From Planctomycetia bacterium (lineage in GTDB: Bacteria > Planctomycetota > Planctomycetia > Planctomycetales > Planctomycetaceae), in NCBI GenBank assembly GCA_016200145.1, contig JACQFH010000364.1, forward strand, positions 1 through 35,209: a stretch of 35,209 nt of DNA. Reading direction: 5' to 3'. Positions within the stretch are counted from its first letter, which is position 1, and each line of letters opens with the position of its first letter. The notes beneath the pieces are model-generated. The model searched no databases, had not been told where the DNA came from, and saw only the letters and a program-made list of their open reading frames with translations. Below are positions 441 through 5,634 of the stretch, piece after piece. Made by a program: the position numbers and the translations under genes.

Positions 441-2120
441 TTACTTCTTCGACACGCCCGCGGCGGACGCTGGGCGAGGGCGGGCCTCCTGCGCCTGCTT
501 GGCGAGCATCGTGTCGGAGAAGCCCTTCAAGTCCGTCCAGAACGTGCCGTCGCCGGCGTACAGGAGCTGGAGCTGGATGTCATCGGGGAGGCCCGACGCG
601 AACACCCACTGGTTGAAGGCGTCGCCGGTCCCGAATGCCGAGACGGCCAGCTTGAATCGGCCGGCTTTGGCTTCTTCCATCAGCTTCTGGGCAGAGGCTT
701 CGGCTTCGCCCAGCGTCACGGTCGCTTCGCGATCGAGCTCGGCGGTCTGTCTGGCGATCGTCGCCACGAGCTTCAGGGTTTCTGCGCCCGTTTCGGCGGC
801 CGTCTTGTCCCCTTCCGCCTTCTTCTCGGCCACGAGTTTTTCGGTTTCGACGCGAATGCGTTCGGCTTCGAGCTCGACCTTCCGCTCGGCTTCGCGCAGG
901 TTGGCCTCCGTCCTGGCGGTGAGCTGTTCCTGGTCGCGGGTCAGCTTGAGCTCGTCGGCGACGTACTTCTTCTGGATCGGGACGCGAACTTCCTGCGGAA
1001 TGTAGATGTGCCGCACCAGGCCGTATTGCAGCACGACGCCCGTTTCGCGCAGCTTCTGCTCGAACTGCTGGGTCGTGATGTCCTGGAACTGCTCGCGGCT
1101 GTCGCCAACCAGCAGATCGACGGCGCCCAGCTTCGAACCCTCGTTGCGACAGATGCTCTCGATGAGGGGAACGACGACGCGGGTCTCGACCGCTTCCAGG
1201 GTACCGCTGAACTCGACGACATGCGGCGCTTCATCGGGCATGATGCCCCAGATTGCGGTGAAATCCATGTGAATCGTGAAGCCGTCTTTCGAGGGAAACA
1301 CGATCCCGCCGGCGCCTGCCGCCATTGAAGGCTCGCCGCTGGCGTCGAGCTCGGGGTTCCCTTTCGCATCCTGTTTGACCGGGCTGATGATTGTCTTTTC
1401 GCGGTAGCCGATTTCGACAATGTCCACTTTCTGCTCGCGCGGATTCATGGGATACAGCCCCGGCGGCAGCACATACGGCTGAATTCCCGCTTTTGCTCCC
1501 GTGAGCGGGTTGTCGGTCTGGTTGGTGACGACCCCCACATAGCCGGTCTTGATCTCGACCCAGCCCGAGTACTTCACCTGTTCGCCGTTCTTCTCGACGT
1601 CGGTCTTGATCTTCTTGAACTCGTAGGCATACGGATTGACGCGATAGCGCCCCGGTCCGTAGACCTTGCGGAGCACGCCCTTGTATTCCGTCGAGCCGAA
1701 GTCGCCGTCGACGAGAAACTGATTGTTCGCGGCGCGGCCCGTGCTGGATTCGGCGGAGGAACGCTGATTGAGATCTTTGCCCACGAGGCTCGTGACGACG
1801 GCCACTTCGCCGGGGGCGACGACCTGGTCCTTCACAATCTGGCAATCCCACCAGATCGGGCAGTAGAAGTGGCGTCCCGGCCCGGGCATTTGCTCGATCA
1901 CGCCGATCTCGCCGCGCTCGAGACTGGCGAGCTGTCCGTCTTTGGGCTTGTTGGCGCTGCCGAACAGCAGCGGGCCCTTGTACTGCAACAGCAGGCTCGA
2001 TCCGACGGGAACCGAAATGCGGTTCACCGTCCATTCGAATGCTTCCCAGCCGGCGGCGCAGGCCAGCAGCAGGACAATCAATCCAGTCGCAGTCCGTCGG
2101 GCACTTGCAGGTTGTGACAT
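441..2120 (-). CDS. SPFH/Band-7 domain protein, membrane-anchored, second of a tandem pair
   Basis: The protein has 559 residues. A hydrophobic N-terminal anchor (about 10-25) is followed by three spaced copies of a short module: GVIEQMPGPGRHFYCP (about 73-88), YKGVLRKVYGPGRYRVNPY (146-164) and a variant ending LPPGLYPMNP (218-227). An SPFH/prohibitin-like core follows (about 275-385), then a long charged coiled coil rich in Glu/Lys/Ala (about 385-490). SPFH proteins form large oligomeric membrane-associated assemblies (stomatin, flotillin, HflK/C). The start at 2120 has a GGAG box eight bases upstream. It lies 12 bp downstream of a paralogous gene, so the two are probably co-transcribed and may build one hetero-oligomer. 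The PGxYxxNP repeats before an SPFH core recall the order of domains in major vault protein; that is inference. The exact role is unknown. Confidence 0.88.
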   Translation of the reverse strand: MSQPASARRTATGLIVLLLACAAGWEAFEWTVNRISVPVGSSLLLQYKGPLLFGSANKPKDGQLASLERGEIGVIEQMPGPGRHFYCPIWWDCQIVKDQVVAPGEVAVVTSLVGKDLNQRSSAESSTGRAANNQFLVDGDFGSTEYKGVLRKVYGPGRYRVNPYAYEFKKIKTDVEKNGEQVKYSGWVEIKTGYVGVVTNQTDNPLTGAKAGIQPYVLPPGLYPMNPREQKVDIVEIGYREKTIISPVKQDAKGNPELDASGEPSMAAGAGGIVFPSKDGFTIHMDFTAIWGIMPDEAPHVVEFSGTLEAVETRVVVPLIESICRNEGSKLGAVDLLVGDSREQFQDITTQQFEQKLRETGVVLQYGLVRHIYIPQEVRVPIQKKYVADELKLTRDQEQLTARTEANLREAERKVELEAERIRVETEKLVAEKKAEGDKTAAETGAETLKLVATIARQTAELDREATVTLGEAEASAQKLMEEAKAGRFKLAVSAFGTGDAFNQWVFASGLPDDIQLQLLYAGDGTFWTDLKGFSDTMLAKQAQEARPRPASAAGVSKK

Positions 2121-2132
2121 GGTTGGGCTCCG

Positions 2133-3752
2133 TTATTCTGAACTGCCGGTGGAAGTCGCAGATGCCCCGGCCGACTGGCTCGCGCGAACCTTCGAGACGG
2201 GCCTCGGGCCGGGACTGTTGAACGAATCGAAGATCTTCATGATCGGGCTGTCGGCCGTGTTCACCATGATGCTGCGGTACGACGAAGCGATCTTCTGGAA
2301 CAACACGTACTGGGCAAACAGGCTTCCTGAGCCGTCGAACGCGTCGACCGACCGCTCCCACCCGGCCGCTTCCGCCTTGTTCTTGAACTCGACGACCTCG
2401 GCCGCCCCCTTGCCCTTCGAGGCGATGGCTGCGGCTTCGTCCTTCGTGGCGGCCAGGCGGAATTCCGAAACGGCCAGCTTCTCGCGGGCCTTGGTCAGGG
2501 CCACTTCCTGCTCGCGGTCTGCGGCGGTCGTTACGCGGATGACTTCCTGCTCGGCCTTCACCAACTCCTGTTTCTGCTTGACCAGCTCTTTCTCGATCGC
2601 CAGCTTCTCTTCCGATTTCTGCTGCAGTATTTCCTGGCGGTATTGCTCTTCCTGTTGCTTGGCGATTTCGCGATTACGCACCGGTGTGGCGATCTGCTCG
2701 GGCGGATTGATCTTCGTGATCAGCGCCTGGATGATCTCGATCCCCAGCGGATCGCACTTCGAGCTCATCATCCGCTGGTACTCGTCCTGGAACTGCGTGC
2801 GCGACGTGCCTTCGATGAAATCCCGGCCCGCGTTCTTCGAGCCCTGCACGCGGCAGAACGCCCGCGCCACCGGCAGGATCACTTTCCGCACGACCTCTTC
2901 GTCGATCCGGTCGCCGTTCGTCTCTTCGTTGTAGAGCACGAACACTTTGGCGGCCATTTCCGGCTTCACCCGGAACTCGACGATGCTGTCGAGGCTGACC
3001 CAGAAGCCGTCTTTCGACGGGAAGCCCAGGTCGCGGCTTTCCGAGAGATTGAACCGCTGGTTGCGGCAGTCGACAAGCTTGACCTGTTGCTCGTACGGGT
3101 TGAAGTTGTACGTTCCCGGATCGAGAGTTTCATTCTGGACGCCGCGGAAGCCTGTCTTCACGAGCAACTTCTGATGCATCTTGTCGGAATCGTCCCAATA
3201 GTCGGCCGGTTTCGCAGGAATCTTCCCGGCGCGGTTGACGACGACTCCCTTGTAGCCGGCCGGCACGACCTGCGGTGTGTGTTCTTCGACGTCGTACAGG
3301 TACGGATTGATCGGGTAGCGGCCGGGAAGCAGCACGCCCGGAACGATTCCTTTTTCACCGTCCTGGTGAGCCAGGAATTCTCCGTAGGGCAAATCGGCGC
3401 CGTACAGGCGAACCTGCACGCCCAGCTTCCCGTCGGGGATCACGACTTGCGGCTTGATTTCCCAGCCCCAGTTGTAAGGGTCGTACTTGAAGAAGTAGCG
3501 GCCCACCTCGAGGACATCTTTCTGCACGCCCTTGTAGTTCGTGTCGGGGGCGACGACGTCGGCATTCGACAGGTCTTTCCCCGTTTTCCTGACCAGCACG
3601 CCGACGTGATACGCCGGCACTTCGATCACAAACTGGGCATAACAGATCCAGACCAGGCCCAGAGCGAACACGGCCAGGGCCGCGACGCCCGCGATGTAGG
3701 GGGCGAACTGCTTCCTGTCGTTGCGGTCTTGCAGAAAAACGTCGCGCGGCAT
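2133..3752 (-). CDS. SPFH/Band-7 domain protein with triple vault-like repeat, first of a tandem pair
   Basis: The protein has 539 residues. A single TM helix (about 17-40) precedes three well-aligned repeats: YKGVQKDVLEVGRYFFKYDPY (73-93), EKGIVPGVLLPGRYPINPY (133-151) and FRGVQNETLDPGTYNFNPY (202-220). They are linked by segments ending in GVxV or GVVV. The SPFH core covers about 240-350 and contains GFPSKDGF (243-250), also seen as VFPSKDGF in the neighbour. A continuous charged coiled coil (350-465) and a low-complexity Ser/Ala tail follow. The start at 3752 is supported by a GGAGG box seven bases upstream. The 12-bp gap to the next gene indicates an operon of two paralogues. Both would sit on the membrane with most of the protein on one side. 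Function is not assigned beyond an oligomeric SPFH scaffold. Confidence 0.9.
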   Translation of the reverse strand: MPRDVFLQDRNDRKQFAPYIAGVAALAVFALGLVWICYAQFVIEVPAYHVGVLVRKTGKDLSNADVVAPDTNYKGVQKDVLEVGRYFFKYDPYNWGWEIKPQVVIPDGKLGVQVRLYGADLPYGEFLAHQDGEKGIVPGVLLPGRYPINPYLYDVEEHTPQVVPAGYKGVVVNRAGKIPAKPADYWDDSDKMHQKLLVKTGFRGVQNETLDPGTYNFNPYEQQVKLVDCRNQRFNLSESRDLGFPSKDGFWVSLDSIVEFRVKPEMAAKVFVLYNEETNGDRIDEEVVRKVILPVARAFCRVQGSKNAGRDFIEGTSRTQFQDEYQRMMSSKCDPLGIEIIQALITKINPPEQIATPVRNREIAKQQEEQYRQEILQQKSEEKLAIEKELVKQKQELVKAEQEVIRVTTAADREQEVALTKAREKLAVSEFRLAATKDEAAAIASKGKGAAEVVEFKNKAEAAGWERSVDAFDGSGSLFAQYVLFQKIASSYRSIMVNTADSPIMKIFDSFNSPGPRPVSKVRASQSAGASATSTGSSE

Positions 3753-4158: not shown

Positions 4159-5634
4159 ATGCGTTACGATCTGGTGGTGATTGGCAGCGGCCCCGCGGGC
4201 CAGAAGGGGGCGATCGCTGCCGCCAAGCTCAACAAGCGCGTCGCGATGATCGAGCGCAGTCCGCTCGGGCCAGGCGGAGTCTGCCTGCACTCGGGCACGA
4301 TTCCCTCGAAGACGATGCGCGAGGCGATTCTGCACCTGACCGGTTTCCATCAGCGCGAAATGTTCGGCGAGCGCCACCGCGAAAAGCGCAAGATCACGAT
4401 GCACGATCTGAAGCGGCAGGTCGCCTACGTCGTTGAGCACGAACTCGACGTCATTCACGATCAGCTCGACCGCAACGGCATCGACCTGTTCCGCGGCGAC
4501 GCGCGGTTTACGGGCCCCCACGACCTGGCCGTCGAATGCGCCGAAGGAACTGTGCAGCTTGCGTCCGAGAATTTTCTCGTGTCGTGCGGCACGAAACCGG
4601 CGCGGCCTGCGAACATCCCGTTCGATGGAAAGCGAGTCTTCGATTCCGACGAAATCCTGCACCTGGAATCAATCCCGCGGTCGCTGATCGTCGTCGGTGG
4701 CGGCGTGATCGGCCTGGAATACGCCATCATGTTCGCCACACTGGGTGTGCGCGTGACGGTCGTCGACGGCCGCGAGCGCATCCTGGAGTTCTGCGACCGT
4801 GAAATCGTCGATACGTTGCTGTTTCACGGCCGGTCGCTGGGCATGGTGTTTCGGCTGGGCGAAGACGTGATCGCGGTGGAACACATTGCGGGAGACCGCG
4901 TCGCCGTGCAGCTCGAAAGCGGAAAACGGTTGATCGGCGACAGCCTGCTGTTCACCGCGGGACGGGTGGGAGACACAGAACGTCTCAATCTGCCGGCGGC
5001 GGGGCTCGAACCCGATGAACGGGGCCGGCTGTGGTGTGACGAGAACCACCGCACGTGGGTCCCGCACATTTACGGCGCCGGGGACGTCGTGGGATTTCCC
5101 GCGCTGGCCAGCGTGTCGATGGAACAGGGCCGCCGCGCGGTGTGCCACGCCTTCGGCCGTACGTTCGAAGGCTGCCGGCACATGCCGTACGGTTTGTACA
5201 CGATTCCCGAAATCTCGATGGTCGGCAAGAGCGAAGAGCAGCTCACGAAAGAACGGACGCCGTACGAAGTGGGAATCGCCCGCTTCCGCGAAATCGCCCG
5301 CGGGCAGATTCTGGGCGACAAGCTCGGCATGCTGAAAATTCTCTTCAACCGGGCCACGCGCAAGCTGCTGGGCGTGCACTGCATCGGCGAAACGGCGACC
5401 GAGATCATCCACATCGGGCAGTCGGTGATGGCGTTCGACGGCACGATCGACTACTTCCGCGACACAGTCTTCAACTACCCGACGATGGCCGAGTGCTACA
5501 AAGTCGCCGCGTTCGACGGCCTCAATAAGCTGGGCTTCGACGGCGAAGCCGATCGCGACGACGCGCAGGAGTGCAAGGTCGCCGAGGAAGCCGTGCAGTT
5601 GAGCGAAGCCGCGGCCGAGATGGCGGCCGTGTGA
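4159..5634 (+). CDS. sthA: Soluble pyridine nucleotide transhydrogenase SthA
   Basis: This 491-residue flavoprotein is of the disulfide-oxidoreductase fold and transfers hydride between NADPH and NAD+ in the cytoplasm. The FAD-binding motif VVIGSGPAG is at 6-14. The segment VCLHSGTIPSK (41-51) has only one cysteine: the second redox Cys of dihydrolipoamide dehydrogenases is Thr, the mark of the SthA branch. A second Rossmann motif GGGVIGLE lies near 178-185, the FAD-binding GAGDVVGFP near 307-315, and a dimerisation domain fills the C-terminal third (about 350-475). The length fits the family, with a slight Ala/Glu-rich extension. The start has AAGGA nine bases upstream. A diverged copy of its last 120 bases occurs at 9539-9658. 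Confidence 0.93.
   Translation: MRYDLVVIGSGPAGQKGAIAAAKLNKRVAMIERSPLGPGGVCLHSGTIPSKTMREAILHLTGFHQREMFGERHREKRKITMHDLKRQVAYVVEHELDVIHDQLDRNGIDLFRGDARFTGPHDLAVECAEGTVQLASENFLVSCGTKPARPANIPFDGKRVFDSDEILHLESIPRSLIVVGGGVIGLEYAIMFATLGVRVTVVDGRERILEFCDREIVDTLLFHGRSLGMVFRLGEDVIAVEHIAGDRVAVQLESGKRLIGDSLLFTAGRVGDTERLNLPAAGLEPDERGRLWCDENHRTWVPHIYGAGDVVGFPALASVSMEQGRRAVCHAFGRTFEGCRHMPYGLYTIPEISMVGKSEEQLTKERTPYEVGIARFREIARGQILGDKLGMLKILFNRATRKLLGVHCIGETATEIIHIGQSVMAFDGTIDYFRDTVFNYPTMAECYKVAAFDGLNKLGFDGEADRDDAQECKVAEEAVQLSEAAAEMAAV

What the first reader, a model, noticed from the sequence alone, without database searches (positions are those of the whole stretch)
441..3752. Tandem SPFH proteins with vault-like repeat architecture
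Both proteins carry three spaced copies of a module of the form (Y/F)xGV...L-x-PG-x-Y-x-x-NPY, each followed by a linking strand ending in GVV or GVxV. An SPFH core and a long coiled coil follow. Major vault protein has the same order: beta repeats, an SPFH-like shoulder, and a long cap helix. The copies in 2133-3752 align residue by residue (73-93, 133-151, 202-220). Unlike vaults, both proteins have an N-terminal membrane anchor, and two paralogues are encoded together. They could form a membrane-anchored barrel or cage. The repeats are visible; the vault comparison is inference.
Basis: partly seen in the sequence, partly recalled or inferred. Interest (0 to 1): 0.62.

Follow-up and report, generated by a model that had tools for sequence, protein, structure and literature searches.

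The report
Membrane-anchored bacterial SPFH pair, vault-like repeats
Two neighbouring planctomycete genes encode membrane-anchored relatives of prohibitin/HflK-HflC that carry three stacked beta modules in front of the usual ring-forming domain, an arrangement that among solved structures is matched only by the shell protein of the eukaryotic vault particle, so they may build a half-vault-like cage standing on a bacterial membrane.

Summary
Two adjacent genes (P2 = 2133-3752 minus; P1 = 441-2120 minus) encode SPFH (Band_7) paralogues. Each has an N-terminal membrane segment, three ~60-residue beta modules, the SPFH core and a long helix. The modules are genuine repeats: sub-profiles match each other at E down to 6e-21, and every intact orthologue scanned has three. 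In an AlphaFold2 model of P2 (modules pLDDT ~80-95), ordinary SPFH structures (prohibitin, erlin, HflC, stomatin, flotillin) align essentially from module 3 onward. All ten listed vault entries, and only they, align continuously from module 1 through SPFH into the cap helix (model 42-419 to MVP 323-714; ~300 residues, Z ~11). So modules 1-3 occupy the places of MVP R7-R9. No sequence-level homology to MVP was detected and no Pfam Vault model matches: a vault-like SPFH variant, not an MVP. The pair is always adjacent, found in about a sixth of Planctomycetota genomes sampled, and in huge-phage contigs with a Gp23 capsid gene. A four-module relative occurs in Rhizobium as 'flotillin family protein'. 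A 2026 paper calls MVP domains unique to the vault. Cage formation and function remain inference.

The parts
2133..3752 (-). P2: SPFH protein, 539 aa, upstream gene of the pair
   Evidence: Band_7 E 1.8e-25; prohibitin by profile E 3.5e-9; AF2 model pLDDT 75.6
3633..3695 (-). P2 N-terminal membrane segment (residues 20-40)
   Evidence: mean hydropathy 2.33 over 19 residues; a hydrophobic segment in all 20 orthologues; helix 13-41 in the model
3462..3629 (-). P2 module 1 (residues 42-97), in the place of MVP R7
   Evidence: HHalign to the other modules, E 1e-17 to 7.5e-9; covered only by MVP entries
3285..3458 (-). P2 module 2 (residues 99-156), in the place of MVP R8
   Evidence: HHalign to P1 module 2, E 5.6e-21
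3066..3275 (-). P2 module 3 (residues 160-229) = usual SPFH1 start, in the place of MVP R9
   Evidence: prohibitin, erlin, HflC and stomatin alignments begin here
2697..3065 (-). P2 SPFH core (residues 230-352), MVP shoulder equivalent
2451..2699 (-). P2 long helix (residues 352-434), CC1 / cap-helix equivalent
   Evidence: single 83-residue helix in the model, low confidence after about residue 410
2220..2279 (-). P2 conserved C-terminal motif IMVNTADSPIMKIF
   Evidence: conserved in alignment A1; resemblance to the HflC tail is from memory only
441..2120 (-). P1: SPFH protein, 559 aa, downstream gene, 12 bp after P2
   Evidence: Band_7 E 3.1e-22; prohibitin Z ~14 by structure with a low-confidence model
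2037..2093 (-). P1 N-terminal membrane segment (residues 10-28)
1833..2018 (-). P1 module 1 (residues 35-96), most diverged copy
   Evidence: HHalign to P2 module 1, E 1.1e-9
1608..1829 (-). P1 module 2 (residues 98-171)
   Evidence: HHalign to P2 module 2, E 5.6e-21
1410..1565 (-). P1 module 3 (residues 186-237) = usual SPFH1 start
   Evidence: HHalign to P2 module 3, E 1.6e-17; SPFH and MVP structures align from residue ~190
996..1409 (-). P1 SPFH core (residues 238-375)
789..995 (-). P1 long helix (residues 376-444)
   Evidence: low-confidence model; conserved region in A2
519..566 (-). P1 conserved C-terminal motif LLYAGDGTFWTDLKGF
   Evidence: conserved in alignment A2

Best explanation
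P2 and P1 are an HflK/HflC- or prohibitin-like pair of SPFH proteins that have gained two extra copies of the beta module with which every SPFH1 domain starts, giving three stacked modules as in the upper wall of a vault half-shell. Most likely they alternate in a ring. Each subunit is anchored by its N-terminal helix, with the bulk on the extracytoplasmic side. The modules form a beta wall, the SPFH domains the shoulder and the long helices the roof. The two extra modules lift the shoulder off the membrane and give a taller closed chamber than HflK/C. The chamber would fence off a membrane patch and shelter or sequester membrane proteins within it. Shown here: the repeats, the domain order, the hydrophobic anchor, the constant pairing, and the predicted-structure match of P2 to MVP R7-R9, shoulder and cap helix. 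Inferred: heteromeric ring, topology, chamber, function. From a published length rule for the first helix (PMC12624060: y = 0.1782x + 10.22), 83 and 69 residues predict roughly 22-25 subunits.
For: Module homology. AF2 model and Foldseek/VIA matches: MVP entries span model 42-419, ~300 residues; other SPFH entries start at ~155-160 or later, apart from two that begin at 110 and 123. P1's module 3 aligns with MVP ~462, the same register. The pair is adjacent, same order and strand, from a 4-bp overlap to a 230-bp gap, in 19 loci measured. In the tree P1 and P2 are separate clades with similar internal groupings, so the triplicated architecture predates the split (inference). Known SPFH complexes are ringed cages made of one protein or of heterodimers of two paralogues (PMC12624060). 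The genome has a canonical HflK/HflC-like pair without extra modules, so this pair is additional.
Against: Only P2 gave a good model; P1 reached pLDDT 54. MVP Z ~11 is no higher than that of small SPFH cores, so the case rests on aligned span, not on Z. No sequence-level link to MVP. No complex was modelled. Charge bias around the anchor is weak (P2 family mean net +1.7 before, +0.75 after), so topology is uncertain. No partner gene such as FtsH or NfeD was identified beside the pair.
Confidence: 0.6

Rival explanations
1. Ordinary HflK/C-like membrane quality-control pair whose extra modules are spacers only: local duplication of the SPFH1 start, arisen independently of MVP, giving a taller stalk with no vault-like closed wall.
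For: Sequence profiles find prohibitin, HflC and stomatin, never MVP. Canonical SPFH domains already carry one such module, so duplication is easy. No significant MVP profile similarity.
Against: The model aligns to consecutive MVP domains continuously over ~300 residues, so the stacking also resembles the vault wall; this does not exclude convergence.
Confidence: 0.25
2. The modules are homologous by descent to MVP repeats: bacterial multi-module SPFH proteins (three or four modules, membrane-anchored) are the stock from which MVP arose by further repeat expansion and loss of the anchor.
For: Graded series: one module (canonical SPFH), three (this pair; Vibrio phage protein), four (Rhizobium, Planctomycetota, 642-kb phage), nine (MVP) (nine from PMC13347060). 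Same order and register.
Against: No sequence evidence; no Pfam Vault match in Planctomycetota, though the control rang nowhere. Independent duplication gives the same series.
Confidence: 0.1
3. The modules are a cargo- or lipid-binding platform, not a wall: each projects outward to hold periplasmic partners on a loosely oligomeric SPFH scaffold.
For: Loops between strands vary in length between orthologues.
Against: Glycine/proline turn and strand residues are the conserved positions in all copies; strict constancy of three copies in the pair fits a fixed height better.
Confidence: 0.05

Closest known systems
Prohibitin 1/2, HflK/HflC, erlin 1/2 (SPFH cages)
   Same: N-terminal membrane anchor, SPFH core, long helix, two paralogues; adjacent genes as in HflK/C; best sequence and Foldseek hits
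   Different: They have one module, these have three; below NCBIfam cut-offs for HflK and HflC
Major vault protein (MVP, vault shell)
   Same: Tandem beta modules, then shoulder (SPFH), then long helix; model 42-419 aligned to MVP 323-714
   Different: Three modules not nine; membrane anchor at the N-terminus, where MVP halves meet; two paralogues; no detectable sequence similarity
Four-module 'flotillin family protein' of Rhizobium (WP_120670126.1) and the 868-aa homologue in this genome
   Same: N-terminal hydrophobic segment, several of the same modules, SPFH, long helix
   Different: Single gene, four modules; annotated as flotillin, repeats not described in the papers found
Bacterial SPFH subfamilies SPFH1-12 (PMC2636767)
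   Same: Same superfamily
   Different: The passages read of that classification mention no multi-module architecture; the word vault does not occur in it

Membership tests
SPFH / Band_7 superfamily | Band_7 domain above Pfam gathering score | tested here: met
   79.9 and 90.4 bits against 23.6
SPFH / Band_7 superfamily | Membrane anchor upstream and long helix downstream of SPFH | tested here: met
   P1 helix from a low-confidence model
HflK / HflC | NCBIfam equivalog cut-offs TIGR01933 / TIGR01932 | tested here: not met
   15-21 bits against 134-159
HflK / HflC | Adjacent paralogue genes | tested here: met
HflK / HflC | Binds and regulates FtsH | not testable with these tools
   needs biochemistry
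Major vault protein | Match to Pfam Vault repeat or MVP shoulder models | tested here: not met
   no hit up to E 10 in 37 family members; own genome and phylum negative, but controls rang nowhere
Major vault protein | Nine N-terminal repeat domains | tested here: not met
   three in every intact pair member scanned
Major vault protein | Order: beta repeats, SPFH-like shoulder, long cap helix, with matching fold | tested here: met
   continuous structural alignment for the P2 model
Major vault protein | No N-terminal membrane anchor; halves joined by N-termini | tested here: not met
   hydrophobic N-terminal segment in all orthologues
SPFH1/2/5 with NfeD operon | Neighbouring NfeD gene | tested here: inconclusive
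   no conserved NfeD-like neighbour seen, but the window's contig ends 440 bp after P1 and neighbours were not all scanned

The most novel reading that the evidence does not exclude
Bacteria and their large phages make membrane-anchored half-vaults: hetero-oligomeric cages whose walls are true MVP-type repeat domains, representing the membrane-bound stock from which the eukaryotic vault arose.
Probability: 0.2. Interest if true: 0.85.

Novelty: new variant of a known kind. Interest (0 to 1): 0.6.

Why it matters
The vault's function and origin are open questions. [quoted passage not shown] Here one protein has both the anchor and stacked MVP-like modules. That offers a bacterial system in which to ask what the modules do, and whether the vault is an elaborated SPFH cage. 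It also suggests that proteins now annotated 'flotillin family' hide this architecture.

Tried and rejected
Sequence-level MVP link: Pfam scans of all 37 members up to E 10, HHalign of full and module profiles to human MVP (the module-profile score lies within the shuffled range) and to three MVP repeats (9 of 200 column shuffles as high): not significant, though a single-species MVP profile has little power (it also missed the shoulder/SPFH match). True MVP in plasmids or viral contigs by protein search: none found. PF11978 / PF01505 genome searches rang in no control, so absence is not shown. P1 structure: a 9-sequence alignment gave pLDDT 54; only the module 3-SPFH part is usable. Functional link to the neighbourhood: the window's other genes are mostly nitrate/nitrite assimilation and housekeeping; only a divergent flavoprotein-like gene recurs. 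Promoter/terminator scan uninformative.

Full report
What is there. The window is one whole contig of an 8.28-Mb, 742-contig genome; named close relatives of the pair are Planctomycetaceae MAGs. On the minus strand, P2 (2133-3752, 539 aa) is followed 12 bp later by P1 (441-2120, 559 aa). Both are Band_7/SPFH proteins and 26% identical to each other.

The repeats are real. I aligned 20 P2 and 17 P1 sequences, cut out the six module segments and compared them as separate profiles. Fourteen of the fifteen comparisons gave E between 6e-21 and 1e-6; P1M1-P1M3 was weak. Positional partners match well (P1M2-P2M2 6e-21, P1M3-P2M3 2e-17), which suggests that the three-module layout is older than the P1/P2 split (inference). 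A module HMM (consensus VKGDVEVPPGEVGVVTNLTGPDLPNGQFLAVDEGEKGIQREVLGPGRYFINPYEYEVDLVDC) finds exactly three copies in each intact member. The HMM was trained on these proteins, so the independent evidence is that it also finds three or four copies in proteins not used for training and none in shuffled sequences or in the genome's canonical SPFH proteins.

Structure. AlphaFold2 modelled P2 well from module 1 to the first half of the long helix. Foldseek against the PDB put prohibitin first (E 3.7e-13), with MVP entries at about 1e-10. The informative result is the aligned range in VIA-align. Prohibitin, erlin, HflC, QmcA, flotillin and stomatin rows start at about residue 155-160 or later (two start at 110 and 123), which is module 3. 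All ten MVP entries listed start at residue 18-42 and run to 419 or beyond, with about 300 residues aligned, Z 10.4-11.5, from MVP residue 321-323 in nearly all (289 in one entry). The extra ~80 aligned residues must fall on modules 1-2 (my accounting, since only ranges are printed). P1's poor model still puts its module 3 at MVP ~462. Modules 1, 2 and 3 thus take the places of MVP R7, R8 and R9 (R-numbers assigned by me from the alignment and the domain order in PMC13347060). Z is not itself evidence for modules 1-2, because small SPFH cores reach Z ~12.

Is it a vault protein? No. It lacks Pfam Vault and MVP_shoulder matches, has three modules instead of nine, has a membrane segment at the N-terminus, and shows no significant sequence similarity to human MVP. 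It is laid out like the upper part of a half-vault attached to a membrane. Whether the modules share descent with MVP repeats or arose by independent duplication of the SPFH1 start cannot be told from these data.

Distribution. Of 59 sampled relatives, 24 have any match and 17 besides the query genome are listed with a P2 hit of E below 1e-100 or a divergent full pair; 50 of 294 sampled Planctomycetota genomes match the P2 profile at E below 1e-30 (some of these hits may be other multi-module SPFH proteins). In every locus where both places could be read, P1 follows P2 on the same strand. Five distinct pairs come from IMG/VR contigs; they form one group within each paralogue clade (support 95/93 and 93/74). 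Three of those contigs are 356-527 kb and carry a Gp23-type major capsid protein; in L067 it ends 855 bp before P2. A ribosomal S12 search found none in five of them. No Terminase_6C was found, so their phage identity rests on the capsid gene and the IMG/VR classification. Beyond the pair, a 548-aa SPFH protein of cultured Vibrio phage 207E48.1 has three modules and a protein of a 642-kb uncultured phage has four. Rhizobium plasmids carry a four-module protein annotated 'flotillin family protein'.

Mechanism. Known SPFH complexes are ringed cages, either homo-oligomers or alternating heterodimers of two paralogues, mostly membrane-bound (PMC12624060). The constant pairing, shared layout and similar trees make a P1/P2 heteromeric ring the likely assembly. 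Stacked modules between membrane and SPFH shoulder would raise the roof and enlarge the chamber. By analogy with HflK/C, prohibitin and erlin, the function would be to fence off a membrane patch and sequester or protect membrane proteins (inference, low confidence). The published helix-length rule (PMC12624060) gives about 25 subunits from P2 and 22-23 from P1; both helix ends are uncertain.

Novelty. Papers found do not describe this architecture (the library holds open-licence papers only). [quoted passage not shown] The proteins here have both. I rate it a new variant of a known kind.

Noticed in passing
L067:3150-4103 and L067:4959-8213; L064, L068 records: Huge-phage contigs (356, 430, 527 kb) with a Gp23 major capsid gene encode the same SPFH pair; in L067 the capsid gene ends 855 bp upstream.
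   Followed up: partly
L087:3878-5524 (Vibrio phage 207E48.1, QZI90398.1): A cultured phage carries a single three-module SPFH protein just upstream of nrdA/nrdB.
   Followed up: partly
L042:1937-4543 (own genome, C552); L080:3899-5938 (Rhizobium): A separate four-module SPFH protein occurs in this genome and, at about 46% identity, in Rhizobium plasmids as 'flotillin family protein'.
   Followed up: partly
window 4159-5634: A divergently transcribed pyridine nucleotide-disulphide oxidoreductase lies upstream of the pair; related flavoprotein-like genes recur there in nine of the 23 loci compared.
   Followed up: no
L066:17-4957: Upstream of the pair in a 60-kb viral contig: NAD synthase, PP2C phosphatase, cytidylyltransferase-like and protein kinase-like genes.
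   Followed up: no
L043:2-4946 (own genome, C542): A tandem of two single-module HflK/HflC-like genes follows a P-type ATPase-like frame that runs on into a third SPFH domain.
   Followed up: no
BFVD A0A3G5A4K1 (Harvfovirus): An 802-aa giant-virus prohibitin-domain protein matches the P2 model over 596 alignment columns; possibly an MVP-like protein.
   Followed up: no
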